Of a stretch of DNA of 64,000 nucleotides, positions 8,021 through 46,612 are shown in pieces. The notes beneath the pieces were generated by a model. That model worked only from the letters and a program-made list of their open reading frames with translations, was not told the DNA's origin and ran no database searches. The translations under genes and the position numbers were made by a program. This DNA is from Candidatus Zhuqueibacterota bacterium (GTDB taxonomy: Bacteria; BS750m-G25), in assembly GCA_016783505.1 (NCBI GenBank), contig JADHWK010000002.1:1-64000 (forward strand). The letters are read 5' to 3'. Within the stretch, counting starts at the first letter, position 1, and each line of letters opens with the position of its first letter.

Positions 8021-9679
8021 CTACTCACTAAATAATTCTTCCCACTTGTAAGACGTCCACTGGCACAGGGGAGCTTCCCGAATCCTGTGAGCCAGATCCT
8101 CATAAGCCACATCAATAGTCATCTGATTAGGCTGAAAAATGATGCTGTGTTCGGTCCTGCGGCTGCCTGATGTCTGCAAAAGGTCAATCATCTCTTGCCT
8201 CCCGATGGTTCGACTGTAAGCAGCGAAACTGGTAAGTTTGTCTATCAAGTCGTGGTAGCGTCGTCCCCACTGGGCAGGCTGAGGTGAGGCGACCTGGTAC
8301 TTCAGAAAAGTATTGCAACAGACCAGGCAGTGCGGATCCGTGGGGGAAATTTCACCGGGATAGCGAATCACACTGCCGTAGTAATCATCCTCAAAAATCG
8401 CTGCAGGATAAGATTGACCCTGATAAGGGGAAACTACGTGAAGAATATTTCCCACACCCAAGGCGCCACCCGCTGGGGTGTTAAAAGAACGGATGATTTT
8501 TTCCGCTTCCACGATGGCATTCTCACCACTCACGGTCTCCAGAATCTCACGGACAATGAGGGACTTGGGCGTCAGGCCGGTTACGCCGGGGTCAGAGTCG
8601 GTATTGCCTTTGTGGGTAAAAACGCCGACACCAGACTCACTTATCCCGGAATAGGTGCCGATAAATCCGGGCCACATCACCGAAACCCACTTCTTTTTGT
8701 CAGGTGAAGAGGGTTCAATGGCAATGATCAACACTGAAAGCACGGTGGTTTTTCTGAGGTCAATTTCACCGTCCATGTCTCTGCCGAGGATCAGCCCACC
8801 TTTTAACTCATCATTCTGCGTCAAGGGCCCCCAGGCTGAGACGCTGGAACAGGACAGGGACAGCCATTCGCCATAGCAGTTGAGGGCCTTCAGGTCACTC
8901 TGCTTGACCTCCCTTCCTAGCGCCTCGATAATCATATCACAACCGGAGTCGCGCATCCCATGTAGCATCCCATCTAGTTCATCAATATCTGATGGCGAAA
9001 AGATAAAATTGGACTCAACGAAGGGAATGACCGTATTCTCATAATACGTAGCAGAGCGAGCACCAAACTCCACGCTAAAAAATTCGACCATATCCCTTAT
9101 CTGAGGACCCACGAGATACCCTTGGGCATATCCCTTTTCTCTGGGGGTGCCCCACAGATGCAGCATCTTCTTACCTTTGATGCTCTTAAGACAACCGTGC
9201 TCTATTCTCTTTTCTTCTTCGGGAAAAGGGGTGGGCTTCTTTAAAACTATGTTGATATTCTGCAGGTCATGTCCATTGGACATGGTCACGGGATCCAGTC
9301 CGCCACGGTCGGCGGAATACCAGCCTGTGGGTTCCGGGATATGGTAATCCACGACGCCGTTTCGATTCACATCCATCCAGATCCAGAGATAGTATGTGGA
9401 ATCGGCTATGTTGGATAACGTGTAGGGACCAAGCTCTTTTTGCTCAATTGTAGGGAAAGTAGTAAAGGGTTCCAATGCCCAAATATCAGGTAGTCTTTGA
9501 GCCTCCTTGGGCCAGGGGAAGGCTTTGACATAGATGGGGGCTCTTTCCGAACCCTGGTAGGATATCGTCCCTGAGATGGAACCCGCTTTGGTTGCTTTTT
9601 TTTGACATGATGAGTAAAAAACCACAGAGACTACTAAGGTTGCGGTTACAAAAAACAACTTCCCGACAGTCCTTTTCAT
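8021..9679 (-). CDS. Exported C45-type Ntn hydrolase with N-terminal regulatory-like domain (copy 1)
   Basis: 552 residues. A signal segment ends at FYSSCQKK, where Cys25 could be a lipoprotein anchor. Residues about 34-145 form a beta-sandwich-like domain (GSISGTISYQGS ... WIWMDVNRNGVVDY). The catalytic part resembles the peptidase C45 / acyl-transferase / phospholipase-B-like Ntn family: Cys277 in SCSSVSAWG is the likely nucleophile, followed by GGLILGRDMDGEIDLRKTT and, later, TEHSIIF. Such enzymes cleave amide or ester bonds after self-processing; the substrate is unknown. It is the last of three tandem paralogues. The start has a GGGGTGGG ribosome site. Confidence 0.75.
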   Translation of the reverse strand: MKRTVGKLFFVTATLVVSVVFYSSCQKKATKAGSISGTISYQGSERAPIYVKAFPWPKEAQRLPDIWALEPFTTFPTIEQKELGPYTLSNIADSTYYLWIWMDVNRNGVVDYHIPEPTGWYSADRGGLDPVTMSNGHDLQNINIVLKKPTPFPEEEKRIEHGCLKSIKGKKMLHLWGTPREKGYAQGYLVGPQIRDMVEFFSVEFGARSATYYENTVIPFVESNFIFSPSDIDELDGMLHGMRDSGCDMIIEALGREVKQSDLKALNCYGEWLSLSCSSVSAWGPLTQNDELKGGLILGRDMDGEIDLRKTTVLSVLIIAIEPSSPDKKKWVSVMWPGFIGTYSGISESGVGVFTHKGNTDSDPGVTGLTPKSLIVREILETVSGENAIVEAEKIIRSFNTPAGGALGVGNILHVVSPYQGQSYPAAIFEDDYYGSVIRYPGEISPTDPHCLVCCNTFLKYQVASPQPAQWGRRYHDLIDKLTSFAAYSRTIGRQEMIDLLQTSGSRRTEHSIIFQPNQMTIDVAYEDLAHRIREAPLCQWTSYKWEELFSE

Positions 9680-9714
9680 TTTCCCACCCCTAACTGATTG
9701 GTCATCAGTCTACT

Positions 9715-11367
9715 TTATTCAAACAATTCCTCCCACCGGTAGCTCGTCCATTCACACAAAGCCGCCTCGCGAATGTCGTATACCAGGTTTTCGTAAGCCA
9801 GATCAATAGTCATCTGATTCGGTCGGAAAATAATACTGTGTTCGGTGGTTCGGTTGCCGGAGACTTGAATAAGTTCGATAATCTCTGGAGTCCCAATACT
9901 TTTGCCATAAACCTTAAACGCAACCAACCGATCGGCCAGGTCCGCATACCTACGGCAGAATCGCACCGCATGGTTTGGAGAAACCCTATATTTCAGGTAA
10001 GTATTGGTACAGACAAGGTTGTAGGAGCAGGTAGGGCGCGCCTCATCCGGATAGCGCATGACACCGCCCTCCATATCTACTTCATAGATGGCGGCCGGGA
10101 CCTTCTGTCCAACGTATGGCGAAACAATGAACAAAATCTCCCCGCTGTTAAATGGCCCCCCTTTGGGTCCACGAAATGTCATCATGGCCTTCTCGGCCTC
10201 ACTAACGGTGTTTTTAGCACCTACTGTCTCCAGCACATCCCGCATAATTAGGGTGCCTGGCCGATAACCCGCGATCGCAGGATCCGATTTGCCGTTGCCG
10301 CTATGATCAAAAATCCCTACACCTTCCTCGTTCATCCCGGAGTAGGTACCTATAAAACCCGGCCACATAACTGAAACCCATTTTTTCTTCTTGGGTGAAG
10401 CTGGTTCAACGGCAAATATCAACACGGAAATGATGGTAGTTTTTCTCAAATCGATCTCGCCGTCCATATCTCGACCAATAATCAGTCCGTCTTTGAGCTC
10501 GTCATTTTCGGTGGCTTTTCCCCAGGCAGAGACACTGGAACATGATAAATCCTCCCCCCACCATTCTCCATAGGCATTAAGGGCATAAAGGTCACCCCGA
10601 ATCACTTCCCGACCCAATGCATCAATAAACATATTGGAACCGGAATCGCGCATCCCCTTTAGCATGGCATCCAGCTCTTCATTATCTTCTTCAGTAAAGA
10701 CGGACCTAGATTCGACAAAGGGAATGACGCTTTTTTCATAATAGGAAGCTGAACGAGCGACAAACTCCACATTGAAGAATTCGATCATGTCCCGAATTTG
10801 AGGGCCAACTAAAAATCCTTGGGCATAACCCCTCTCGGCTGGTTTTCCCCAGAGATGCAGCACCTTTTTATCCTTGATAGTCCTCAGGCTGCCGTGTTCG
10901 ATTCTTTTATCCTCTGTGGGAAAGGGTGTGGGACGTTTTAGGATGATGTTTATATTTTGTACTTGACTATCTTCGTTTATAGTAACCTCATCCAGCGAGC
11001 CGTTGTCAGCTGTATACCAACCCGTAGGTTCGGGAATATCATAATCTACTTCTCCGTTGCCGTTTATATCCATCCAGGCCCAAAGGGTGTAATTGGAGTC
11101 GGGTAAATCGGAAATGGTATACGGGCCTAGGCTGTGGGTGCGTACAGATGAGAAAGTGATAAGAGGCTCGTGCTCCCAGATGTAGCGATGTCTACGCAAA
11201 CCTTTAGGTACCGGATAGGCTCTCACATAAATGGCACCTCTTTGGCGACCTTTGTAGGTTACTTTGCCTGCAATGGAGCCAGCTAAGCTTGAGTTTACCC
11301 CGGTAACCGCTAGGGTGAATACCAGCAAAATTGCGGTAAATGTCAAATATCGCAAAAGGGTTCTCAT
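9715..11367 (-). CDS. Exported C45-type Ntn hydrolase with N-terminal regulatory-like domain (copy 2)
   Basis: About 550 residues from the ATG at 11367, which has AGGAG eight bases upstream and begins a signal peptide ending around NSSLAGS; a longer frame to 11391 adds eight residues. The layout is the same as the neighbouring paralogues: beta-sandwich domain (GKVTYKGRQRGAIYVRAYP ... WAWMDINGNGEVDY), then the Ntn domain with nucleophile Cys in LSCSSVSAWG, GLIIGRDMDGEIDLRKTT and TEHSIIFRPNQMTIDLAYE. It is clearly closest to copy 1. It lacks the lipobox cysteine of copy 1, so it is probably periplasmic or secreted. Confidence 0.75.
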   Translation of the reverse strand: MRTLLRYLTFTAILLVFTLAVTGVNSSLAGSIAGKVTYKGRQRGAIYVRAYPVPKGLRRHRYIWEHEPLITFSSVRTHSLGPYTISDLPDSNYTLWAWMDINGNGEVDYDIPEPTGWYTADNGSLDEVTINEDSQVQNINIILKRPTPFPTEDKRIEHGSLRTIKDKKVLHLWGKPAERGYAQGFLVGPQIRDMIEFFNVEFVARSASYYEKSVIPFVESRSVFTEEDNEELDAMLKGMRDSGSNMFIDALGREVIRGDLYALNAYGEWWGEDLSCSSVSAWGKATENDELKDGLIIGRDMDGEIDLRKTTIISVLIFAVEPASPKKKKWVSVMWPGFIGTYSGMNEEGVGIFDHSGNGKSDPAIAGYRPGTLIMRDVLETVGAKNTVSEAEKAMMTFRGPKGGPFNSGEILFIVSPYVGQKVPAAIYEVDMEGGVMRYPDEARPTCSYNLVCTNTYLKYRVSPNHAVRFCRRYADLADRLVAFKVYGKSIGTPEIIELIQVSGNRTTEHSIIFRPNQMTIDLAYENLVYDIREAALCEWTSYRWEELFE

Positions 11368-11438
11368 CTCCTTATCTCCTGAAATATTCATAAAGATTAA
11401 ACCGCAAATAGACCAACAGAATAAATGGCTCTGACAAA

Positions 11439-13133
11439 TTACTTCCCCTTGCCGAATATCTCATCAAAATGAAACGTTGTCCATTTAAGAAACGGGGCAT
11501 CCCATTTGTCAAACTTCAGATCATCATTAGCCACATCGAACGTCATTTCATTGGGACGGAAAATAATGCTGTGTTCGGTGGTGCCATGGGCCACGCTTTG
11601 CAACAAATTGATCACCTCTTTAGTGCCAACAGGTTTATTCGTGCGAGCCCAGGCTTCGGCCTTGTTAATGGCAACGGTGACTCGCCATTGTGTGGAATAA
11701 TATGGTATCTGGCCAAATACTTTACCCAGTTTATCGGGCGAAACACCAAATTTAAAAAAGTGATTGGAGCCGACAATATTAAACGGACTGCTGGTCGGTG
11801 GTTCATCTGGATAGCGTACCTTACCACCAAACCGGTTGCCTTCATAAACCACAGCCGGATATTCTTGCCCCCTATAAGGAGCAGCGATAAACATAACGGT
11901 CGGTGCACCACAGGATCCACCGCCGCTGGATCGGTAGTGATCGATCACCTTCACCGCATCCTCTACCATGTTCTCCGGTCCTACTTCTTCCAGAATGGCT
12001 CGCATAATGAAGGTAACCGGTGTGTGATTCACGGTGATGGGCCCCGGTTTCTTACTGCCATAATTCAGCATGCAGTAAACACCGTCTTCATTAATGCCGG
12101 AATAGGTACCGATAAAGCCAGGCCATTTGAACGAAATCCATTTCTTTTTGCCCATAGGTTCAAAGGCAAAGATCAAAAAATCAATGACCGTAGTTTTTCG
12201 GATGTCACATTCACCGTCCATATTTCTTCCGGTAATGAGACCGCCCTCAAGTTCGCTATTTTCGGTCGCTTTTCCCCAGAAGGCACACTGAGTACAGGCC
12301 AGGCGGGACATCCAGAATTCTCCATAGGCATTGATCGCCAGCAAATCTATCCAGTCAATCTCTCTACTCAAGGGTTCGATGTACAAATCCGTACCACTAT
12401 CACGCATACCCTGAATCATGGCATCCAGTTCAGCCCTCAGATCCTTGGTTAACGTGATACGGGATTTAAGCACAGGAATAATTTTTTCTTTGTATTTGGT
12501 GGCTGAACCTACTTCATCTTCCAAGGTGAAAAATTCAAAGAAGTCCATTATTTGAGGGGCGATCAAATAGCCATGGGCATAACCCATCTCCACCGGCGTA
12601 CCCCAGAGGTGAAGCACCGGATACCCTCTTATCCTTTTGAGTGCCCCGTGTTCCGTTTTTAATTCTCTGTCAGGAAAAGGTCTTACCTCCCGCAGAATAA
12701 TGTTCGCTACTTGGGTATTTTCTTCCTGGGTTAGCGTTATCGGTTCCATTCTACCGTAATCCGAGCTATACCACCCGATGGGTTCCGGGGGATCAAAATT
12801 GACATGTTCGTTGTCATCCACATCCATCCAACCGTAGATGGCATATTGGGCATCGGGGAGGTCAGTTATGGTAAAATCTCCGGGATTGGTGAGTTTAATA
12901 AGCTTGAAATAGTCGTGCATCCAAATATCAGGCCTTTGGAATTTCGCTTCTGTACCGGGTGCGGGCAATTGGGATTGAAAAACACGGAGATAGACGGCAC
13001 CCTTTTTTGCCCCTTTATAAATAACCTTGCCGGAAATGGTACCTGCATGAAGAGAGGATAGGAGGATAAAAGTGGAAAGCACTATCAAAAACATCGAATG
13101 GATAAACATGAATTTAGTTGAAAGTTTCCGCAC
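11439..13133 (-). CDS. Exported C45-type Ntn hydrolase with N-terminal regulatory-like domain (copy 3)
   Basis: 564 residues from a GTG at 13133 with AAGGAG upstream. The signal peptide ends near SSLHAG. It is the most diverged paralogue: the sandwich domain (GKVIYKGAKKGAVYLRVF ... GWMDVDDNEHVNFD) is followed by the Ntn core with CTQCAFWG (the first Cys is the likely nucleophile), GGLITGRNMDGECDIRKTT and TEHSIIFRPNEMTFDV. As first gene of the tandem set it probably carries the promoter; the gaps of 71 and 35 bp suggest cotranscription. The exported glutamate-racemase-like gene lies just upstream. Confidence 0.75.
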   Translation of the reverse strand: MRKLSTKFMFIHSMFLIVLSTFILLSSLHAGTISGKVIYKGAKKGAVYLRVFQSQLPAPGTEAKFQRPDIWMHDYFKLIKLTNPGDFTITDLPDAQYAIYGWMDVDDNEHVNFDPPEPIGWYSSDYGRMEPITLTQEENTQVANIILREVRPFPDRELKTEHGALKRIRGYPVLHLWGTPVEMGYAHGYLIAPQIMDFFEFFTLEDEVGSATKYKEKIIPVLKSRITLTKDLRAELDAMIQGMRDSGTDLYIEPLSREIDWIDLLAINAYGEFWMSRLACTQCAFWGKATENSELEGGLITGRNMDGECDIRKTTVIDFLIFAFEPMGKKKWISFKWPGFIGTYSGINEDGVYCMLNYGSKKPGPITVNHTPVTFIMRAILEEVGPENMVEDAVKVIDHYRSSGGGSCGAPTVMFIAAPYRGQEYPAVVYEGNRFGGKVRYPDEPPTSSPFNIVGSNHFFKFGVSPDKLGKVFGQIPYYSTQWRVTVAINKAEAWARTNKPVGTKEVINLLQSVAHGTTEHSIIFRPNEMTFDVANDDLKFDKWDAPFLKWTTFHFDEIFGKGK

Positions 13134-37157: not shown

Positions 37158-37715
37158 ATGCCCTGGATCAGTATCAAAGATGAGGGGAAAGCTACCGGAC
37201 AGTTAAAGGAAATTTACGAAGAGCTTAAAGGAAAACGCGGCAAGATTTCAAATATTATGAGGGTTCAGAGTTTGAATCCCGGAGCTATGAAAGCCCATCT
37301 GAATCTTTATATTAACCTGATGTTCGGGCAATCGGGGTTATCCCGCGAGGACCGTGAAATGATCGCTGTTGTTGTTTCCGCCGCAAATGGCTGTGAATAT
37401 TGTGTGAACCATCATGCAGAGTCTTTAAATCATTACTGGAAAGATAGTGAAAGAATACAGCAGTTTATAAAGGACTTCAACCCCCTTGAACTGGCTGAAA
37501 GGACGTCCCAAATGCTTAATTATGCGGTTAAATTGACTAAGACTCCAAAAGGGGTCCATCGGTCTGATATTTATGCTTTACGTGAATGCGGTTTTTCAGA
37601 TGAGGATATCTTGAACATAAATTTGATAGTTAGTTATTTCAACTTTGTAAATCGGATTGCGAATGGTCTTGGGGTGGAATTCACGCCGGAAGAGGTACAA
37701 GGGTATAAACTATAA
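37158..37715 (+). CDS. Peroxidase-related enzyme, carboxymuconolactone decarboxylase / AhpD-like
   Basis: 185 residues. The AhpD-type core is visible as GLSREDREMIAVVVSAANGCEYCVNHH, with the redox CxxC (Cys-Glu-Tyr-Cys) and downstream His pair. The N-terminal WISIKDEGKATGQLKEIYEE is typical of the peroxidase-related branch. Such proteins reduce peroxides using the cysteine pair. It is followed 14 bp later by a second, shorter family member with an AAAGGAG site, so the two probably form an operon. Confidence 0.88.
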   Translation: MPWISIKDEGKATGQLKEIYEELKGKRGKISNIMRVQSLNPGAMKAHLNLYINLMFGQSGLSREDREMIAVVVSAANGCEYCVNHHAESLNHYWKDSERIQQFIKDFNPLELAERTSQMLNYAVKLTKTPKGVHRSDIYALRECGFSDEDILNINLIVSYFNFVNRIANGLGVEFTPEEVQGYKL

Positions 37716-37729
37716 AGGAGATAAAAGCA

Positions 37730-38080
37730 ATGGGTGAGAGAGAGATTGAACAATTCAAAGCGGAGCGAGCAAAACTGAACCAGATCGTGATGAAATACAG
37801 CGGCAGGAATATCAAGAGGTTCTACAGTCTCGATTCCCAGGTATTTAGTGAGGGCGTTCTTCCAAAGAAGATGAAGGAGTTGTTAGGTCTCGTTGCTTCG
37901 CTGGTACTGCGATGTGACGATTGTATTACGCATCACATCATTCGGTGTTATGAAGAGGGCGTGAAGGATGATGAACTTGAGGAGGCAGTTGCTATCGCCC
38001 TTATGGTAGGGGGATCAATTACTATTCCACATCTCAGGAGAGCCCTCCAGACATGGGATCAATTGAAAGGGCAGGAATAG
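37730..38080 (+). CDS. Carboxymuconolactone decarboxylase / AhpD-like protein (short)
   Basis: 116 residues with the sequence LPKKMKELLGLVASLVLRCDDCITHH, placing the CxxC redox pair (Cys-Asp-Asp-Cys) and following His as in the family. ELEEAVAIALMVGGSITIPH is also typical. It is likely a homotrimer or hexamer with disulfide activity. It partly overlaps the longest frame of the next gene, whose real start is at 38101, 21 bp downstream. Confidence 0.88.
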   Translation: MGEREIEQFKAERAKLNQIVMKYSGRNIKRFYSLDSQVFSEGVLPKKMKELLGLVASLVLRCDDCITHHIIRCYEEGVKDDELEEAVAIALMVGGSITIPHLRRALQTWDQLKGQE

Positions 38081-38953: not shown

Positions 38954-39613
38954 ATGAGCACATATATCCTGATGAAGATATTGGAATCCGCCCCGAGCAG
39001 GTATGACCGGGGCATTCGAATTCTTACGCTGGGAAGATTGGATAAAGTTTATGATCGTTTAACGTCCCATATAAAAAGCGGGGAAAGGGTCCTTGACATT
39101 GGCTGTGGCACCGGAGCACTGTCACTTCGGGCGGCCCAGAAAGGCGCTAAAGTGAAAGGAATTGACGTCAATTCCCAGATGTTAGAAATCACCCAAAAGC
39201 GGGCAATGGAGGCGAATCTTACTCAGAATATGGAATTATGTGAGATGGGTGTTGCTGAGCTGGGAAGCGACGAATCTGAAAGCTACGACGCGGTGATGAG
39301 TGGTCTTTGTTTTTCTGAGTTGACGGAAGATGAATTAGCTTATTCCCTGAAAGAGCTGAGAAGAATATTGAAGCCGGGAGGCCTTCTGCTCATTGCTGAT
39401 GAAGTAAGACCTAAAAGAATTTTAAAGAAGATGGTGAACTGGCTGATAAGGTTTCCCCTTGTCATCATTACTTACCTTATCACCCAAACGACTACAAAAG
39501 CTGTAAAGGAACTGCCTAAAAAGATAGAAGAATCAGGCTTTCTCATAGAATCGGTCACATTAAACAGAATGGGGAATTTTATCGAGTTAGTAACAAAAAG
39601 GCCTGAGAAATGA
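38954..39613 (+). CDS. Corrinoid-protein-associated methyltransferase (CpaM-like)
   Basis: 219 residues. The start MSTYILMKILESAPSRYDRG followed by IRILTLGRLDKVYDRL is characteristic of the CpaM family, and RVLDIGCGTGALSLRAAQKG is SAM motif I. CpaM methyltransferases occur next to HgcA-like corrinoid proteins. Here the gene overlaps the HgcAB-like fusion by four bases (ATGA), which strongly supports joint function. By family it uses SAM; the acceptor (corrinoid or a small molecule) is not established. Confidence 0.82.
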   Translation: MSTYILMKILESAPSRYDRGIRILTLGRLDKVYDRLTSHIKSGERVLDIGCGTGALSLRAAQKGAKVKGIDVNSQMLEITQKRAMEANLTQNMELCEMGVAELGSDESESYDAVMSGLCFSELTEDELAYSLKELRRILKPGGLLLIADEVRPKRILKKMVNWLIRFPLVIITYLITQTTTKAVKELPKKIEESGFLIESVTLNRMGNFIELVTKRPEK

Positions 39614-40755
39614 ATCCCTTTAGTTATATTGTTGTGAATGTAGTTGAAATCTTGCTGAGGGTTGTTCCTCTTCCCTGCAGGGCAGGTTTGGTTAAAATAG
39701 GGAATCCGGAGCGGCACTCGCCTGTTTTCTTAACCTGCAATTATCATCTGACTGTAGAGAGGGTAAAAAGAGCATTGAAGGGGGTTGATTGTTATCTTCT
39801 TGTTGCTAATAGCCGGGGAATCAACGTGTGGTGTGCGGCGGCCGATGGCCATTTCACCAATCACGATGTTATCTCAGTTCTTAAAACCAGTGGAATTGAA
39901 GAACTGGTAGATCACAGAAATGTGATAATGCCCCAACTGGCTGCCACCGGTGTTGAGGCCAAAATTATTCATAAGAAATCAGGATGGAAGACTATCTGGG
40001 GGCCGGTTTATGCCAAAGATATTCCCCTTTTCATACAAAACAATCTCAAGAAAACCCCGGAAATACGGGAAGTTGAGTTTCCTCTGACCCAACGTATTGA
40101 ATTAGCTGCCAGTTGGGCATTTCCGATTTCCATATTCTTAGCTCTCATCATAATTCCATTTTGGCCTGAAGCGATTTTCCCCATCATTCTTATGATTTGG
40201 GGGTTGTCCTTCTTAATCTTCATGTCTTTTCCCCTTTATAGCCGGTGGCTAAGTTCTGAGGGAAAGAGGATTGGCCTTATCTTCTTCGATTTTGGGCGAG
40301 GAGGATTTCAACTAATCCTATGGTGTTTACTTATTATTGGGATTATTGCTTATAGTCATTTATTTGTAGAGTTTAGTTGGGGATTTATTTTTCGCTGGGG
40401 TTTTATTTCATTCATTGTTGTTCTCGTGCTAAGCCTTGATCTAATGGGCAGTACCCCTGTATATCATAGCGGCTTACATGAAGATAGATTGCTAAAAGTC
40501 ATTCTTGATGAGAAGAAATGCAGGGGGGCTGGTTTTTGCGAGCAGGTTTGCCCCAGGAATTGCTATGGGGTGGATAGCAACCGGCATATGGCGGCAATGC
40601 CGAAAACCGAACGCTGTGTTCAATGCGGGGCCTGTATCGTCCAATGCCCCTTCAATGCCTTGTATTTTAAAAATCCCAAGGGGGAAATAATACTCCCGGA
40701 TACCATCAGAAAATTTAAGTTAAACCTTTTAGGCAAGCGTCTAAGGGAGAAATGA
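39610..40755 (+). CDS. HgcAB-like fusion protein (corrinoid-binding domain, TM helices, 2x[4Fe-4S] ferredoxin)
   Basis: 381 residues. Residues about 36-160 form the HgcA-like corrinoid domain with cap-helix motif INVWCAAADGHF (Cys75), VSVLKTSGIEELVDHRNVIM and PQLAATGVEA; true HgcA has N(V/I)WCA(A/G)GK, so Gly-Lys is replaced by Ala-Asp. Hydrophobic segments lie at about 169-208, 230-252 and 258-278. The C-terminal ferredoxin has Cys304, 310, 314, 318 and Cys336, 339, 342, 346 (CVQCGACIVQCP), replacing separate HgcB. HgcAB methylates mercury; fused relatives are known whose function is uncertain. It overlaps the CpaM-like gene. Confidence 0.82.
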   Translation: MNPFSYIVVNVVEILLRVVPLPCRAGLVKIGNPERHSPVFLTCNYHLTVERVKRALKGVDCYLLVANSRGINVWCAAADGHFTNHDVISVLKTSGIEELVDHRNVIMPQLAATGVEAKIIHKKSGWKTIWGPVYAKDIPLFIQNNLKKTPEIREVEFPLTQRIELAASWAFPISIFLALIIIPFWPEAIFPIILMIWGLSFLIFMSFPLYSRWLSSEGKRIGLIFFDFGRGGFQLILWCLLIIGIIAYSHLFVEFSWGFIFRWGFISFIVVLVLSLDLMGSTPVYHSGLHEDRLLKVILDEKKCRGAGFCEQVCPRNCYGVDSNRHMAAMPKTERCVQCGACIVQCPFNALYFKNPKGEIILPDTIRKFKLNLLGKRLREK

Positions 40756-40757
40756 GA

Positions 40758-40780
40758 AAAGCCGGGCTTGACCCGGCTTT
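40758..40780 (+). terminator. Rho-independent terminator after the HgcAB-like gene
   Basis: AAAGCCGGG (40758-40766) pairs with CCCGGCTTT (40772-40780) around a CTTGA loop; the run of T is short. It begins three bases after the stop codon of the fusion gene. Confidence 0.8.
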
Positions 40781-40904: not shown

Positions 40905-41585
40905 TTAAAACACCCATTCAGCAACTAAAATCCCTGTCGCTCCGTGATGGAAAGAATGGACTTTCAGTTCAGATAGATCAAATTTGGAAATTACCCCCCT
41001 TAATCCCCCCTCCCCCATGAATTGCTTAAAGTTCCTGAAGTGATCCCCGCCAGCCTTCCTTTCAACGGCTCTCTGGACCAAAGCTATCATCTTAGAAATC
41101 GGGGTTGTGGGAACGACATAGTCAGCGATGAGGAGCTTACCTCCCGATGTGGTAACTCTATGGGCTTCTCCTAAAACCCGTTTTCTATCATCCGGGGTTT
41201 TTTCGTGCAGGGCAAAGGATAAAATTACGCAGTCAAAGGTTCGGTCCTCAAAGTGCAGATGCCTCGCATCTTCCCTGAAATAATGAATGCCGCCCGGACT
41301 ACTTTCCCTGGCCATCCGGATCATCGCTTCGGAAGAATCAACCCCTGAGACCCGGAACCCTTTATTATGAAGAAGAATGCACTGCGCCCCCGTTCCACAG
41401 CATAAATCAAGGATATTCTGAAAGCTAAATCTTTCTGCAATGGCAACTATCTCCTTCTTTATAGACCTTAACACGGGCTCAAGGAGGTAACCATAAACCC
41501 ATGTTGAATATTCGTAATCAGCTTTCGGCTTGGTTACCGCCTCAGGTACGCTTCGCACTATGATTGTAGATGTTTCCGTATTCAT
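40905..41585 (-). CDS. Class I SAM-dependent methyltransferase (UbiE/ArsM-like fold)
   Basis: 226 residues from the ATG at 41585, which overlaps the TGA of the upstream permease (ATGA); a longer frame to 41882 is an antisense-like shadow of the permease with Gly/Arg/His-rich text and is not the start. SAM motif NILDLCCGTGAQCILLH, then FRVSGVDSSEAMIRMA, YFREDARHLHF and RVTTSGGKLLIADYV. The substrate is not clear. The tight coupling to a permease suggests that product and transport go together. Confidence 0.85.
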   Translation of the reverse strand: MNTETSTIIVRSVPEAVTKPKADYEYSTWVYGYLLEPVLRSIKKEIVAIAERFSFQNILDLCCGTGAQCILLHNKGFRVSGVDSSEAMIRMARESSPGGIHYFREDARHLHFEDRTFDCVILSFALHEKTPDDRKRVLGEAHRVTTSGGKLLIADYVVPTTPISKMIALVQRAVERKAGGDHFRNFKQFMGEGGLRGVISKFDLSELKVHSFHHGATGILVAEWVF

Positions 41586-42118
41586 AGGACAGTGCGGGAA
41601 AAGAACATCTGGGCGATTATTCCGGCGATGGGGGGAAAGATGAAGGTGCAGGCCAGGCGGATGGCGGTAAACTTCCAGCCCAGGATTCCCACCTCCATGG
41701 GCAACCGAGCGATGGCCCACAGGGACCATCCGGTCAGGAAGGCCACCATGGTCCCCACCCCGGCCCCGGACTTTAACAACCCGGCCACGATGGGCAGGCT
41801 CACATAGGGCCCCCCTGGGGATATTCCCCCGGCTATGGTTCCCAAAATAATCCCCCTTAAGCCCGATCCCGCCCCCACCCATTTTGACAAAAATTCCTGG
41901 GGGAGAAGGACCCGAATCATTCCGGCCACGATAAGGGCGAAAACCAGTAGGGGCAGCATTTGAACGATCATGCCCGCTGCGGATTTCAATCCAACAACGT
42001 GCTGGCCTCCACCCTTGGTGTAGCCCAAAAAGAATAAAACCGCTGCCAGGACTCCCATGATAATCGTCGGTATCAGCATATTTGCGTTCCTCTTTTGTTT
42101 TTTATTTTTATCGTTCAT
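41582..42118 (-). CDS. Permease of the ArsP/DUF318 type
   Basis: 178 residues with about five transmembrane segments. PLLVFALIVAGMIRVLLPQE, then GLRGIILGTIAGGISPGGPY and AFLTGWSLWAIARLPMEVGI are typical of the permease/DUF318 family (ArsP-like). At half the usual length it resembles the short subfamily that dimerises. ATG 42118 is preferred to an in-frame TTG at 42127. Some ArsP members export organoarsenicals, but this substrate is not shown. It overlaps the downstream methyltransferase gene. Confidence 0.78.
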   Translation of the reverse strand: MNDKNKKQKRNANMLIPTIIMGVLAAVLFFLGYTKGGGQHVVGLKSAAGMIVQMLPLLVFALIVAGMIRVLLPQEFLSKWVGAGSGLRGIILGTIAGGISPGGPYVSLPIVAGLLKSGAGVGTMVAFLTGWSLWAIARLPMEVGILGWKFTAIRLACTFIFPPIAGIIAQMFFSRTVL

Positions 42119-42232
42119 TGATCCCAACCAGAGTAGATTCCGGCGGATGACCCACCACTAAAAATTGGCAGGCAGGCAACATCTAACACAGGCAAAAATA
42201 ACACATTTATTTAAAAAATGCAATTGAAAAAT

Positions 42233-42268
42233 AAAAAAGCGATACCCTTGGGTACGGCTTTTTTTGCT
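42233..42268 (-). terminator. Rho-independent terminator
   Basis: AAAAAAGC-GATACCC / GGGTAC-GGCTTTTTTT forms a mostly complementary stem with A- and T-runs on both sides. It lies downstream of the lipoprotein gene at 42354 and can act on either strand. Confidence 0.65.
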
Positions 42269-42353
42269 TTTTGAATTTTATGGCAATTTACAAGCTCTAA
42301 CGTAGGTGTCCCCAATTGATCCTATCCATCGCACCTTTTTTCAACTGATCTTC

Positions 42354-43193
42354 TCATTTTAACTCTTTCAATTCCGGGGCTGATGCCAACTGGGTTTTCA
42401 CCCAGATCTCCTGTTTTTTGGGCGGTTGCATGCGGGAACCACCCCTAGAGCCACCACTGCCACTACCACCGCGTCGGCCGCCCCCCATGCCACCCCTACC
42501 ACCACCGCGTTGGCGATCACCCATCCTGATGCCGCCCCACTCCAATCCGAGACTGATGGTTTGTCCCGGCTCCGCACCGATGCCATAATCGAAAACATCG
42601 CTTTTCTTCAGCGGAACTCTGAATTCATACGTGTAGATATCTTGGGGAGTGGCAAAGCTAACAGCCGGGCCGCTGGAACCATCAGCGGGAATGTTTATCG
42701 CTTGATCCCCTTTTTTGAGGATAACGGTGATTTGATCGGCTCTGGCCCTCCGCTGCATGAGACGCTCTCTCTGTTCCGGGGTCAGGCTCTCCCAGAATCC
42801 GCCCTCGCCAGTCATTCCCGGCCTTTGCATTTGCAAAAGAGGGGGTCCGCCGGTGTAGCGGATGCCGAAATCCTTCTTCTTTTTCCCGGAATTGTCCAAC
42901 CACAGGGTCAGGCCGCCCATGCGGATGGCCCGCGCCCATTTAGGGTCGTTGAAACGAAAAAGTACGTAGAGGTTTTCGCTATCATTGCACAAACCCAGTA
43001 GCACGCCGCTGTCCTCAAAATAGGTAGTGGGCACACCTTCCCATTCCGGCATTTTACCATCTACCAGCACCGGCTCCGCCGACCAGTGGGTCTGCACCTC
43101 CTGGCTTTTGCAACCCGCTAACAGGATTGAGCCAGCGAATATTAATGTGAGGAGTGCTTTTGCACTCAACGATGTAAAATCCTTGTAAACCAT
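42354..43193 (-). CDS. Lipoprotein with CBM9/DOMON-like domain and Gly/Arg-rich tail
   Basis: 279 residues from the ATG at 43193, which has GGGGTGA upstream (a frame to 43256 is longer but poorer). The lipobox is ILLAGCKSQ. A beta-sandwich domain follows (VDGKMPEWEG, LYVLFRFNDPKWARAIRMGG, LWLDNSGKKKKDFG), typical of carbohydrate-binding family 9-like modules. The tail is an RGGGRGGMGGG-type low-complexity region before QEIWVKTQLAS. It is the last gene of the putative ECF train (93 bp after the previous gene). The function is unknown. Confidence 0.68.
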   Translation of the reverse strand: MVYKDFTSLSAKALLTLIFAGSILLAGCKSQEVQTHWSAEPVLVDGKMPEWEGVPTTYFEDSGVLLGLCNDSENLYVLFRFNDPKWARAIRMGGLTLWLDNSGKKKKDFGIRYTGGPPLLQMQRPGMTGEGGFWESLTPEQRERLMQRRARADQITVILKKGDQAINIPADGSSGPAVSFATPQDIYTYEFRVPLKKSDVFDYGIGAEPGQTISLGLEWGGIRMGDRQRGGGRGGMGGGRRGGSGSGGSRGGSRMQPPKKQEIWVKTQLASAPELKELK

Positions 43194-43286
43194 TTTTTCA
43201 CCCCATTCATGACTGATTGAAAAACGGGGGTGACCGGAACGATTGTTCACCCCCACCGAATGGATACAATTCTTAGAAGCTCCATT

Positions 43287-44069
43287 TTATTTAAGCAAGA
43301 CCATCCGCTTGGTTAGTGCTTGGGGCCCTGCTTCGATGCGATAGAAATATATCCCACTGGCTAGTTGGACTCCATTCACATCACGGCCATCCCAGAGCAG
43401 GTTGTAACTGCCCGGTGCCTGGTATCCCATCTCATAGGTGCGAATTGTCTGTCCTTTCATATTATAGATCAAAACCCGCACCCTTTCCCCGGTTTGCAGG
43501 GTATAGTTAATCTGGGTCTCGGGGTTGGCGGGATTGGGATGGTTGGATACCCTGATGATAGTCTTTTTATCCCCCCAACGACCTTGGCCCATTCGCCTAC
43601 CGCGGCGCCAGCTGCCCGGATCGCGCCACCACAGACCATTTATCTCGTAAACCACAATCACATCCGGGTCTGGACTCGTCATCAACCCACCGGTAATCGT
43701 CAGCTCCTCACCTTCTGCAGGGCGAGCAGCCCCGTTTCCGGGATCATACCAGGGTGGTCCAAAGGCCAGGCGATAATCAGCAGCACCATCGCCATCTTCG
43801 TCTAAATAATAGCAAACCCGCACCGTACTGGAATCACCAAGGGTATCCAGGATTGTGATGCCAGAAACCGTGATCGTTTGTAGCGAATCGGGACGATGCC
43901 AATGTCCATGATGACCGCCATGTCCGGGGCCGTGTCCGCTACCATGGCCACCCCCATGTCCACCTGGGCCACCCCCGTGCTGGGCTAAAACGATGTCGCT
44001 CATTCCAGATATGAGAAACACGGAAAGCAATGTTACCAGGATCATGATCGGCACTCGAAATCGCTTCAT
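43287..44069 (-). CDS. Secreted protein with His/Gly-rich N-terminus and C-terminal FlgD-like/T9SS-type domain
   Basis: 260 residues. After the signal peptide (cleavage near VLAQH) comes a stretch of Gly, His and Pro (HGGGPGGHGGGHGSG, residues about 31-58) that could bind metal ions. A middle domain includes YYLDEDGDGAADY. The C terminus (about 175-260) is a FlgD-like / Por-secretion domain: SNHPNPANPETQINYTL, VRVLIYNMKGQ, LLWDGRDVNGVQLASGIYFY and RMVLLK. This is the typical sorting tail of FCB bacteria, so the protein is likely secreted or surface-attached. AGGAGG precedes the ATG. Confidence 0.82.
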   Translation of the reverse strand: MKRFRVPIMILVTLLSVFLISGMSDIVLAQHGGGPGGHGGGHGSGHGPGHGGHHGHWHRPDSLQTITVSGITILDTLGDSSTVRVCYYLDEDGDGAADYRLAFGPPWYDPGNGAARPAEGEELTITGGLMTSPDPDVIVVYEINGLWWRDPGSWRRGRRMGQGRWGDKKTIIRVSNHPNPANPETQINYTLQTGERVRVLIYNMKGQTIRTYEMGYQAPGSYNLLWDGRDVNGVQLASGIYFYRIEAGPQALTKRMVLLK

Positions 44070-44079
44070 GGTAGACCTC

Positions 44080-44316
44080 CTATTTTGTTGAAATCATCTT
44101 TTTTAAATTCCGCACCTCATTGTAGAACTGGATAAACTCGCTGTTGATGAACTCTACCTTCAGTTGATCAGTATTCCCATCACACTCGAAAGTAAAGTAA
44201 GCCTTTGATTTTTTCTGATCTGATTTGATCAAGCGGTGTCCCTTCATCTTCAGATAGGCTGAAAACGGAAGGTCATCGGTGGTGATGTGATTGTTTTTGA
44301 TTTTATTTGATCTCAT
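44080..44316 (-). CDS. DUF5659 domain-containing protein
   Basis: 78 residues: TTDDLPFSAYLKMKGHRLIK, then KKSKAYFTFE and LKVEFINSEFIQFYNEVRNL. This fits the small DUF5659 family (DDLxLAAYLxxxGHxL ... FF/Fxx F). Cytoplasmic, no signal. It lies 11 bp upstream of the His/Gly-rich secreted-protein gene and may link the ECF operon to it. Confidence 0.72.
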   Translation of the reverse strand: MRSNKIKNNHITTDDLPFSAYLKMKGHRLIKSDQKKSKAYFTFECDGNTDQLKVEFINSEFIQFYNEVRNLKKMISTK

Positions 44317-44436
44317 TGTTATTAACCTCTTTTAACTTGCAGGACAGAGGTCCTTCTCCGTTTCCCATTCCAAGATCTTTCAACACTTCCCGGCGGGCTT
44401 GTATAATTTGACGTCATCTGGTATAGAAGTGGTCTA

Positions 44437-44919
44437 TTACCACCTCCCACCGCCCACGCGACCATGTCGCCCATCAGGTCCGGGTCGACCCCGATGTCCC
44501 AAGCCGAAGCCCTTGCTGTCGAAATAAACCCGCTGTTCTTCGGTTAAGATCCTGCGGACGGCCTGGTGGTGAGCCACCTTTTTCTTCATCATCCTGGTCC
44601 GCAGCCTGCTGATGTCGTCAATGAGTTTGTTGATGGCCTTCTCATCGGTTTTATTGGCGGTCATCAGGGTCCTGAGCCGAGCCCGCTTTTCCCCGATTTC
44701 ATTCTTCAGGGGCAAACCTTCTTTCATAAAGTCCACCCTCATTCCCCGGATCTTGGCCTCTTGTTCTTCCGTCAGGTCGGGGATATTCATCCGATCCCAA
44801 CTCGGGCGTGGACCCAAACCCATTCCACAGGGGCCTTTTCCCAGCCCCTGGGCCAAAACCGGCCCTACGGCCAACGTCAACACCAGCAACCCTGCCAGCA
44901 TTCCCATGGACTTTTTCAT
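44437..44919 (-). CDS. Spy/CpxP-family periplasmic protein (metal/envelope stress)
   Basis: 160 residues with a signal peptide (cleavage near VLAQG). The LTEEQEAKIRGMRVDFMKE, ARLRTLMTANKTDE and RRILTEEQRVYFDSKG sequence follows the LTxxQ helical pattern of Spy/CpxP chaperones. The C terminus is Gly/Arg/His-rich (GHRGRPGPDGRHGRVG). AGGAGGAAGG precedes the ATG. Family members bind unfolded periplasmic proteins or heavy metals; it follows a second such protein and the anti-sigma factor. Confidence 0.82.
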   Translation of the reverse strand: MKKSMGMLAGLLVLTLAVGPVLAQGLGKGPCGMGLGPRPSWDRMNIPDLTEEQEAKIRGMRVDFMKEGLPLKNEIGEKRARLRTLMTANKTDEKAINKLIDDISRLRTRMMKKKVAHHQAVRRILTEEQRVYFDSKGFGLGHRGRPGPDGRHGRVGGGRW

Positions 44920-44977
44920 TTTACCTTCCTCCTTTCAGGTTTAATGTAAAATTTTGGTAAAAATGTGAACTAAAGAT

Positions 44978-45505
44978 TTACCATGGAGAGTTATATTCTT
45001 TAGGTGGTGGATACCCTCTACCCATCCGGCCCGGTCCCCGACCCCGGCGGTGGGGCATCATCCGGCCATGACGGAAGCGATCTTTAAACAGGGTAAAGAA
45101 CTCCTCCCGCTGCTGGGGGGTGAGGATATTTCTCATTTTTACGGTTTTTCTGATAGCCCTTTTTTCCAACTTTGCCTGAAGGGCGGCGATCTCATCCAGT
45201 TTCCGGTCTATTGTTAATGAATCGGATTCCGCATTTCTCAGAAGGTCAATCAGTTCTCCTCGCTTCTGATGAAGTTGATCCCGCAGCCCGGATAAATCAG
45301 CCCGAAAAGTCCCCCACATATCTTCCATCCGGGCGATCTGGGAATCAGTCAGTTTCAGCGGACCGCGCTCCCAGCCCCGCCCCCAGAAGGGGCGTTTTAC
45401 CCTTGGTCGGGATTCCCTCCACCAATGGTAACCAATAGTGCCAACAGCGGCCAGGTTGACAGCCAGCGAAAAGATCAACACGATCAAAAGCCAATTTTTC
45501 TTCAT
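44978..45505 (-). CDS. Periplasmic heavy-metal sensor-like protein (Spy/CpxP superfamily)
   Basis: 175 residues. An N-terminal anchor helix (LLIVLIFSLAVNLAAVGTIG) is followed by a periplasmic helical region with LTDSQIARMEDMWGTFRADL, KLDEIAALQAKLEKRAI and ILTPQQREEFFTLFKDRF, i.e. the LTxxQ repeats of Spy/CpxP and CnrX-type sensors. The tail is rich in Arg, Gly, His and Met (HGRMMPHRRGRGP). It sits 9 bp downstream of the anti-sigma gene. It may modulate the anti-sigma factor in response to metals. Confidence 0.8.
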   Translation of the reverse strand: MKKNWLLIVLIFSLAVNLAAVGTIGYHWWRESRPRVKRPFWGRGWERGPLKLTDSQIARMEDMWGTFRADLSGLRDQLHQKRGELIDLLRNAESDSLTIDRKLDEIAALQAKLEKRAIRKTVKMRNILTPQQREEFFTLFKDRFRHGRMMPHRRGRGPGRMGRGYPPPKEYNSPW

Positions 45506-45514
45506 GTTCTTCCT

Positions 45515-45991
45515 CTATTGTTGATTCGTTTGGGTTAAGGCAAGCAGTGTTTCCCCTAAGGATCCTTCAGGAATATCATCCAGGGTACCCAGCCCCAGGA
45601 CGTTGACAAATTCCACCTCAGGACTTTCCAGCACCCGGGACTCAAAAGCGGTGGAATACAACCTATTACCAAAATGAATTCCGATGACTAACCCCACGAT
45701 TAAAACGGCGGTAACCGCCGCCGGTACAACATACCGATCAATTAACCCTTCCCAAAAAGGCACAGGACTGGGTTTTTCTGCAACCCTTTTTCGGACCTTT
45801 TCCCAGAGAAAAGGGGTGGGTTCTACCCGCTCCCACGTTCCCAGAAGGTCCCAGACCCCCTGAAGCTCCTGGACCTCGGCAGCGCATCGGGGACAGAACT
45901 TGAGGTGATCCGAAATCCTTTTACCCTCCTCTTCGGGCAACTCACCGTCCAAGTAAGCGGACAGCCTCTTTTTGATAAATCGGCACTTCAT
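45515..45991 (-). CDS. Anti-sigma factor with N-terminal zinc finger (zf-HC2)
   Basis: 158 residues. The N-terminal zinc-finger is visible as AYLDGELPEEEGKRISDHL followed by KFCPRCA, giving the HxxxCxxC anti-sigma motif. One membrane helix (VVPAAVTAVLIVGLVIGI, about 89-106) places the N terminus in the cytoplasm, and a periplasmic tail ends TQTNQQ. It lies 55 bp downstream of the ECF sigma gene, its likely partner. Confidence 0.85.
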   Translation of the reverse strand: MKCRFIKKRLSAYLDGELPEEEGKRISDHLKFCPRCAAEVQELQGVWDLLGTWERVEPTPFLWEKVRKRVAEKPSPVPFWEGLIDRYVVPAAVTAVLIVGLVIGIHFGNRLYSTAFESRVLESPEVEFVNVLGLGTLDDIPEGSLGETLLALTQTNQQ

Positions 45992-46045
45992 GGGTTTTTT
46001 CCTCTTTCTGTTAACTTAGACACAGTAGATGCCAAAAACTTTCGT

Positions 46046-46612
46046 TTATGTCAATAGTGGGGACAGTTTTTTCCTGAGGTTCAGTTTGGCCCGGTGAATC
46101 AGGGACTCTACTGCTGAAAGAGAGGTATTCATCACCCCGGCGATTTCTTTGTAGGACAAACCCTCGTAACGGTGCAGGATGATAGCAGTTCGCTGCTTCT
46201 TGGGTAAAGCGTGCAGGGCTTTCTTTACGCTCTCCTCTTTTTCCTTCTTCATAAGTTGGGCATCCGGTTCGCCGTCCGAAGGAGCGGGGAAGTCGTTAAG
46301 TTGGGATTCTTTAGTGGAAACACAATCCAGGGGAAAAAATAACCGGGTCCGCTTGCGTAAGACGTTTAACGAAAGATTAATGGCAATACGATAGAGCCAG
46401 GTGGAAACTTTGGCCTCGTGTCTGAAGCTGCCGGCGGAGTGATAGGCTTTGATGAAAACATCCTGGGTAATGTCCTCAGCATCATGGCGACTTTCCAGCA
46501 TTCGATAGGCTACATTAAACACCATAGACTGATATTTCCGTACCAAATCCTGGAAAGCAGTTTGATCCCCGGCGGCGATCCGGGTTAGATATTCCGATTC
46601 AATCCCTGACAT
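46046..46612 (-). CDS. ECF sigma factor (RpoE-type)
   Basis: 188 residues. Region 2 reads YQSMVFNVAYRMLESRHDAED, then ITQDVFIKAYHS and WLYRIAINLSLNVLRKR; region 4 reads LPKKQRTAIILHRYEGLSYK followed by EIAGVMNTSLSAVESLIHRA. There is no sigma region 1 or 3, as in ECF factors. It heads a train of anti-sigma, two Spy/CpxP-like proteins and secreted proteins, which suggests that it responds to envelope or metal stress and that the genes are its regulon. Confidence 0.9.
   Translation of the reverse strand: MSGIESEYLTRIAAGDQTAFQDLVRKYQSMVFNVAYRMLESRHDAEDITQDVFIKAYHSAGSFRHEAKVSTWLYRIAINLSLNVLRKRTRLFFPLDCVSTKESQLNDFPAPSDGEPDAQLMKKEKEESVKKALHALPKKQRTAIILHRYEGLSYKEIAGVMNTSLSAVESLIHRAKLNLRKKLSPLLT

What the first reader, a model, noticed from the sequence alone, without database searches (positions are those of the whole stretch)
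38954..40780. CpaM-like methyltransferase overlapping an HgcAB-like fusion
Seen: a four-base overlap (ATGA), an HgcA-like cap-helix motif with Cys75, transmembrane helices and two [4Fe-4S] ferredoxin clusters on one chain, ended by a strong terminator. Known: HgcA carries N(V/I)WCA(A/G)GK and works with HgcB to methylate mercury; fused HgcAB-like proteins exist, but their function is uncertain. Here Gly-Lys in the motif is Ala-Asp, so mercury methylation is doubtful. It could reveal a different corrinoid methyl-transfer pathway.
Basis: partly seen in the sequence, partly recalled or inferred. Interest (0 to 1): 0.75.

Follow-up and report, generated by a model that had tools for sequence, protein, structure and literature searches.

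The report
Methyltransferase paired with mercury-methylator-like membrane protein
Two overlapping genes encode a dedicated SAM methyltransferase and a membrane vitamin-B12 protein related to the mercury-methylating enzyme; the pair is already named in databases, is found across many bacterial and archaeal phyla, very probably does not methylate mercury, and its real methyl acceptor is unknown.

Summary
38954-39613 is CpaM (NF043040, 296 bits, cutoff 180). It overlaps by ATGA with 39610-40755, an HgcAB-like fusion (NF043039, 468 bits, cutoff 285). The protein fails the HgcA (175<275) and HgcB (43<99) cutoffs. So this is a new member of a catalogued pair of unknown function.

What I add: among 80 named relatives in at least 17 phyla, CpaM lies directly upstream in 72, and it is fused to the partner in four proteins. 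In 290 genomes CpaM occurs only with HgcAB-like or ferredoxin-less relatives (8 genomes) and in none of 14 canonical-HgcA-only genomes. No other neighbour is conserved. The corrinoid domain is sister to HgcA, not CdhE (100/100).

The HgcA Lys is Gly in 80/81 members; Asp79 is unique to this window. Stronger: HgcB's mercury-handling cysteines are absent, and two organisms with fused HgcAB made no methylmercury. 'Two [4Fe-4S]' is doubtful: cluster motif I lacks its second Cys.

Best explanation: CpaM passes SAM's methyl to the corrinoid, held by the invariant cap Cys and reduced by the built-in ferredoxin, for transfer to an unidentified non-mercury acceptor.

The parts
38954..39613 (+). cpaM: class I SAM-dependent methyltransferase, 219 aa
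   Evidence: NF043040 296.1 bits vs cutoff 180; class I methyltransferase fold of the homologous domain in a natural fusion; glycine-rich SAM motif DIGCGTG and residues E11, Y17, D18, S121, E122, E127, E150 conserved in at least 70 of 73 relatives
39610..39613 (+). ATGA stop/start overlap of the two genes
   Evidence: sequence; 20 related loci have the same 4-base overlap
39610..40755 (+). HgcAB-like fusion protein, 381 aa
   Evidence: NF043039 467.9 bits vs cutoff 285
39667..40083 (+). corrinoid-binding domain (residues 20-158)
   Evidence: PF03599 CdhD 64 bits; structure match to CFeSP and HgcA
39823..39849 (+). cap-helix motif NVWCAAADG with Cys75 (39832-39834) and the unusual Asp79 (39844-39846)
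   Evidence: Cys invariant in 81 of 81; position 79 Gly in 80, Asp only here
40084..40434 (+). membrane domain, about four transmembrane helices (residues 159-275)
   Evidence: hydropathy and helices H159-181, H186-205, H233-252, H257-275 in the model
40438..40440 (+). codon of Asp277 at the end of the membrane domain (motif DxxGSTP)
   Evidence: Asp in 77 of 77 HgcAB-like; Asn or Gln in 14 of 15 HgcA
40495..40674 (+). dicluster ferredoxin domain (residues 296-355); motif I lacks Cys II (Ala307), motif II complete
   Evidence: Pfam Fer4 hits; motif census; HgcB model 9a0b_B matched
40758..40780 (.). GC-rich hairpin between convergent genes

Best explanation
CpaM and the HgcAB-like protein form a self-contained, membrane-bound, SAM-driven corrinoid methyl-transfer enzyme. 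Inferred cycle: the C-terminal ferredoxin reduces the corrinoid in the HgcA-like domain to Co(I); CpaM delivers the methyl group of SAM to it; the methyl-Co(III) corrinoid, held by the cap-helix Cys75, then passes the methyl to an acceptor at or in the membrane that is not Hg(II). Shown here: the domains, the pairing, the natural fusions, the ancestry. Inferred: direction of methyl transfer, Cys-on ligation, reduction by the ferredoxin. Unknown: the acceptor (a metal, metalloid or membrane-soluble compound are the candidates).
For: CpaM is directly upstream in 72 of 80 relatives; of the other eight, L096 shows a CpaM piece at its contig edge, L057, L088 and L098 have CpaM elsewhere in their draft genomes, L060, L072 and L117 are cut by contig ends, and only L075 has full upstream sequence and no CpaM in its genome. 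Four natural single-chain CpaM-HgcAB fusions (L118, L119, L121, L023) and two CpaM-HgcA-like fusions without ferredoxin (L040, L162) say the two act on each other. CpaM occurs in 8 of 290 genomes: all 7 with HgcAB-like plus G004 with a ferredoxin-less relative, and none of 14 with only canonical HgcA (Fisher 2.5e-13 and 8.6e-6). CpaM and partner distances correlate, r=0.90 over 72 pairs, 0 of 2000 permutations as high. No other gene is conserved next to the pair, so it probably contains its own methyl donor and electron input. Purified HgcAB uses SAM as methyl donor through methylcob(III)alamin with Co-thiolate ligation (PMC11588087). Cap Cys invariant 81/81. 26 of 50 (draft) genomes show no CFeSP, so a Wood-Ljungdahl methyl supply is not a general requirement.
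Against: HgcAB itself takes methyl from SAM without a separate methyltransferase (PMC11588087), so CpaM need not be the donor enzyme; it could act on the acceptor or product instead. No experiment on any CpaM was found in the library searched. The [3Fe-4S]-like motif I in most members is unexpected for a low-potential Co(I) reductant. One relative (L075) shows no CpaM. The natural-fusion model has pTM 0.87 but I could not read coordinates, so the distance from SAM site to corrinoid was not measured.
Confidence: 0.5

Rival explanations
1. CpaM acts on the acceptor side: it methylates, from SAM, the same small or membrane-soluble molecule that the corrinoid protein methylates or demethylates (a two-methyltransferase biosynthesis or detoxification step), without touching the cobalt.
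For: CpaM's nearest characterised relatives are UbiE/MenG-type enzymes that methylate small membrane quinones (73 bits; Coq5 among the structural matches). HgcAB can be methylated by SAM unaided (PMC11588087).
Against: Single-chain fusions and exclusive pairing fit direct action better; UbiE similarity is far below family cutoff (73 vs 158-216 bits); no biosynthesis genes are conserved nearby.
Confidence: 0.22
2. It is a mercury methylation system like HgcAB, with fused subunits.
For: Sister clade to HgcA; same domain order and cap Cys; model matches HgcA/HgcB model 9a0b.
Against: Fails HgcA and HgcB cutoffs; the ferredoxin part has no Cys after motif II, so it lacks HgcB Cys73 and C-terminal Cys94/95, needed in vivo (PMC7305189); two organisms with fused HgcAB, P. 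furiosus and Methanococcoides methylutens, made no methylmercury (PMC5893877).
Confidence: 0.08
3. It is an accessory corrinoid protein of the CODH/ACS (Wood-Ljungdahl) methyl branch.
For: Corrinoid domain matches PF03599; 24 of 50 genomes also carry CFeSP subunits.
Against: CdhE rows form a separate clade at 100/100; 26 of 50 genomes and the window's own draft genome show no CFeSP; no CODH/ACS gene is conserved nearby.
Confidence: 0.06
4. The pair maintains other corrinoid enzymes: a SAM- and ferredoxin-dependent reactivation system for oxidised corrinoid proteins such as MetH.
For: The own genome encodes a MetH with no activation domain detected (S-methyl_trans, Pterin_bind and two B12 domains only, 816 aa); Fe-S plus SAM is a usual reactivation chemistry (own knowledge).
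Against: It has its own corrinoid-binding domain and membrane anchor, which reactivators do not need; no conserved linkage to corrinoid enzymes.
Confidence: 0.07

Closest known systems
HgcAB-like fusion protein (NCBIfam NF043039) with CpaM (NF043040)
   Same: Both proteins exceed the curated cutoffs; same order, overlap and architecture as most relatives.
   Different: Asp at cap position 79 where the other 80 sequences have Gly. Otherwise an ordinary member.
HgcA/HgcB mercury methylation proteins (NF040863, NF040864)
   Same: Corrinoid domain with cap-helix NVWCA and invariant Cys, membrane domain, dicluster ferredoxin; nearest relatives in the tree.
   Different: One chain; HgcA Lys lost; Asn/Gln at the end of the membrane domain replaced by Asp277; no HgcB Cys73 or C-terminal Cys; motif I lacks Cys II; paired with CpaM, which canonical-HgcA-only genomes lack.
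Corrinoid iron-sulfur protein large subunit (CdhE/AcsC, NF003195)
   Same: Same fold of the corrinoid domain (rmsd 1.5 A).
   Different: No cap Cys in CdhE, no membrane domain; separate clade.
UbiE/MenG/Coq5 methyltransferases
   Same: Among the closest named class I methyltransferases to CpaM.
   Different: Well below their cutoffs; CpaM is tied to a corrinoid protein.

Membership tests
HgcAB-like fusion (NF043039) | score over curated cutoff 285 along the whole model | tested here: met
   467.9 bits, model 2-350 of 350
HgcAB-like fusion (NF043039) | corrinoid domain, membrane domain and ferredoxin on one chain | tested here: met
CpaM (NF043040) | score over curated cutoff 180 and adjacency to an HgcAB-like gene | tested here: met
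   296.1 bits; ATGA overlap
HgcA (mercury methylation) | curated score cutoff 275 | tested here: not met
   174.8 bits, residues 24-167 only
HgcA (mercury methylation) | cap motif N(V/I)WCA(A/G)GK | tested here: not met
   NVWCAAAD; Cys and preceding residues kept, Gly-Lys lost
HgcB (mercury methylation) | curated score cutoff 99 | tested here: not met
   42.7 bits
HgcB (mercury methylation) | two CxxCxxCxxxCP motifs | tested here: not met
   motif II complete, motif I lacks Cys II (Ala307)
HgcB (mercury methylation) | Cys about 12 residues after motif II and Cys at the C-terminus (Cys73, Cys94/95 in ND132, PMC7305189) | tested here: not met
   no Cys after residue 346
HgcAB (mercury methylation) | produces methylmercury | not testable with these tools
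   two other organisms with fused HgcAB were negative (PMC5893877)
CdhE / CFeSP | corrinoid domain placed within the CdhE clade | tested here: not met
   22 CdhE rows separate at 100/100
corrinoid proteins generally | binds a corrinoid cofactor | not testable with these tools
   fold and cap motif fit; no binding data

The most novel reading that the evidence does not exclude
CpaM plus HgcAB-like is a widespread, horizontally mobile, SAM-driven organometallic methyl-transfer enzyme whose acceptor is not mercury, and canonical HgcAB is a relative that lost the dedicated methyltransferase and acquired mercury-handling cysteines.
Probability: 0.3. Interest if true: 0.8.

Novelty: new member of a known kind. 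Interest (0 to 1): 0.42.

Why it matters
Why organisms carry HgcAB at all is open, since no benefit of mercury methylation has been shown (own knowledge). A sister family that keeps the same chemistry apparatus, adds an almost always present SAM methyltransferase and seems not to touch mercury could reveal the original substrate of this enzyme type. It also matters for surveys: fused HgcAB-like sequences counted as hgcA would overstate mercury-methylation potential.

Tried and rejected
Substrate from neighbourhood: no gene besides CpaM is conserved; TetR regulators in 7 of 80 loci and one ArsR are the only hints. ArsP_1 permease and Metal_resist operon next to the pair in the window: convergent strand, and the permease was not found beside other members, so not used as evidence. 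Compensation between loss of ferredoxin Cys II and gain of Cys318: raw Fisher p 7.6e-7 but no support once the tree is taken into account, so dropped. Asp277 as a marker of all CpaM-linked proteins: holds for 77 HgcAB-like, L040 and L025, but L162 appears by eye to have Ser there, so only claimed for HgcAB-like. Riboswitch or RNA upstream: none in Rfam. CobS in the own genome: none, but the draft is 60% complete. Literature search for CpaM found no paper on it. Co-evolution contacts between CpaM and partner: not attempted, 72 pairs are too few. The one search for related loci pattern, [NP][STA][RSN]G[IFN]NVWC, limits the census to relatives that carry it, so invariance of that stretch, including the cap Cys, is partly by selection; the positions after it are not affected.

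Full report
What is there. Window 38954-39613 (+) encodes a 219-residue class I SAM methyltransferase and 39610-40755 (+) a 381-residue protein, joined by an ATGA overlap. NCBIfam names both: CpaM, 'corrinoid protein-associated methyltransferase' (296.1 bits, cutoff 180), and 'HgcAB-like fusion protein' (467.9 bits, cutoff 285). The second protein does not reach the cutoff of HgcA (174.8 of 275) or HgcB (42.7 of 99). Its regions are a CdhD-type corrinoid domain (residues about 20-158), about four membrane helices (159-275) and a dicluster ferredoxin (296-355). The AlphaFold model (70-row alignment, mean pLDDT 89.6, pTM 0.88) matches the published HgcA model 9a0b_A first (E 3.6e-11), then the CFeSP large subunit (rmsd 1.5 A over 126 columns), and the HgcB model for the ferredoxin part.

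The host. The window lies in a draft genome of 2.5 Mb, 60% complete, the only member of its phylum in the genome set. Its only other PF03599 match is a MetH; no CFeSP or second HgcA was found, with the caveat of incompleteness.

The pair in other genomes. One profile scan gave 80 named loci in Bacteria (53) and Archaea (20; 7 unassigned) and at least 17 named phyla. CpaM lies upstream in 72. Of the eight others, L096 carries a CpaM piece at its contig edge; L057, L088 and L098 belong to genomes with CpaM elsewhere, although L098 has 929 bases upstream without it; L060, L072 and L117 are cut by contig ends; only L075 (Chromatiales) has ample upstream sequence and no CpaM over the cutoff in its draft genome, an RND transporter gene taking the place. 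The same 4-base overlap occurs in 20 loci. In four proteins (L118, L119, L121, L023) CpaM and the HgcAB-like protein are one chain of 586-592 residues; in two more (L040, L162) CpaM is fused to an HgcA-like protein without ferredoxin, and G004 has a CpaM plus a ferredoxin-less relative as two genes. Distances between CpaM and partner correlate at r = 0.90 over 72 pairs with 0 of 2000 permutations as high. In 290 genomes chosen without regard to this family, CpaM is found in 8: the 7 with HgcAB-like and G004; it is absent from the 14 with only canonical HgcA. CpaM and the corrinoid-membrane part are the constant core and the ferredoxin is the variable part. No further gene is conserved nearby; TetR-type regulators occur in 7 loci and an ArsR-type regulator in one (L024).

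Ancestry. In a tree of 122 corrinoid domains, 22 CdhE rows separate at 100/100, 15 HgcA rows group at 98/99, and the HgcAB-like rows (with L025) group at 98/93. The gene tree mixes phyla (25 label changes, least possible 16), which fits lateral spread but does not prove it.

Active-site reading. Cap Cys75 is invariant (81 of 81, partly because the search pattern includes it). The HgcA Lys position is Gly in 80 of 81 and Asp only in this window, one base from Gly, so it may be a private change or an assembly error; loss of the Lys is a family trait and not a peculiarity of this locus. Asp277 at the end of the membrane domain is invariant in 77 of 77 HgcAB-like rows where HgcA has Asn or Gln in 14 of 15. 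Ferredoxin motif I lacks Cys II in 59 of 81, including here. The resulting C-x5-C-x3-CP spacing is that of the [3Fe-4S] motif of succinate dehydrogenase and fumarate reductase iron-sulfur subunits (own knowledge), so one [4Fe-4S] plus one [3Fe-4S] or unusual cluster is more likely here than two standard [4Fe-4S]. There is no Cys after motif II, whereas HgcB needs Cys73 and at least one C-terminal Cys in vivo (PMC7305189).

How it probably works. Purified HgcAB takes its methyl from SAM through methylcob(III)alamin with Co-thiolate ligation (PMC11588087). A relative that almost always carries a dedicated SAM methyltransferase, sometimes on the same chain, most simply uses that enzyme to load the corrinoid. 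This step is inferred, not shown. The final acceptor is unknown. Mercury is unlikely: the mercury-handling cysteines are missing, and P. furiosus and Methanococcoides methylutens, both with fused HgcAB, produced no methylmercury above controls (PMC5893877). I treat those fused proteins as this family on the strength of the Thermococcaceae and Methanohalophilus relatives (L064, L086; 457-458 bits to NF043039), without having scored their own sequences. Methyl supply from the Wood-Ljungdahl pathway is not a general requirement, since 26 of 50 draft genomes lack CFeSP.

Verdict. The new content here is the strict pairing with controls, the natural fusions, the family-wide view of the cap residue, and the Fe-S correction.

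Noticed in passing
window 40905-46612 (-): Convergent gene cluster: ECF sigma factor, zf-HC2 anti-sigma factor, two Metal_resist proteins, a protein with FlgD-like tail, a 181-aa ArsP_1 permease (half the Pfam model) and a second class I methyltransferase; looks metal-responsive, and the permease was not found beside other CpaM pairs.
   Followed up: partly
window 37158-38080 (+): Two adjacent AhpD/CMD-domain genes upstream of the pair, the second weakly like arsenosugar-associated peroxidase-like proteins.
   Followed up: no
L024 (G237): HgcAB-like variant with complete CxxCxxCxxxCP motif I, Cys-rich C-terminal tail (CKCPTC, CC), an ArsR-type regulator upstream and DsbD_TM gene nearby; a canonical HgcA in L161 (G315) also sits beside a DsbD_TM gene and a Cys-rich protein.
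   Followed up: partly
L162:954-2633 and L040:772-2367: CpaM fused to HgcA-like proteins without ferredoxin (Lokiarchaeota and a Deltaproteobacterium); below the cutoffs of both HgcA and HgcAB_like, so a third, unnamed subfamily.
   Followed up: partly
L075:6958-10014: In a Chromatiales genome the HgcAB-like gene overlaps an RND (ACR_tran) transporter gene and CpaM is missing.
   Followed up: partly
L051, L023, L074, L100 and window 40908-41606: A second class I methyltransferase, not CpaM, lies within about 1.5 kb of the pair in five loci.
   Followed up: partly
G000:C89 (L002:427-2877 -): Own-genome MetH with homocysteine, pterin and B12 domains but no C-terminal activation domain detected.
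   Followed up: no
window 8021-13133 (-): Three adjacent paralogous genes of 552-564 aa, not identified.
   Followed up: no
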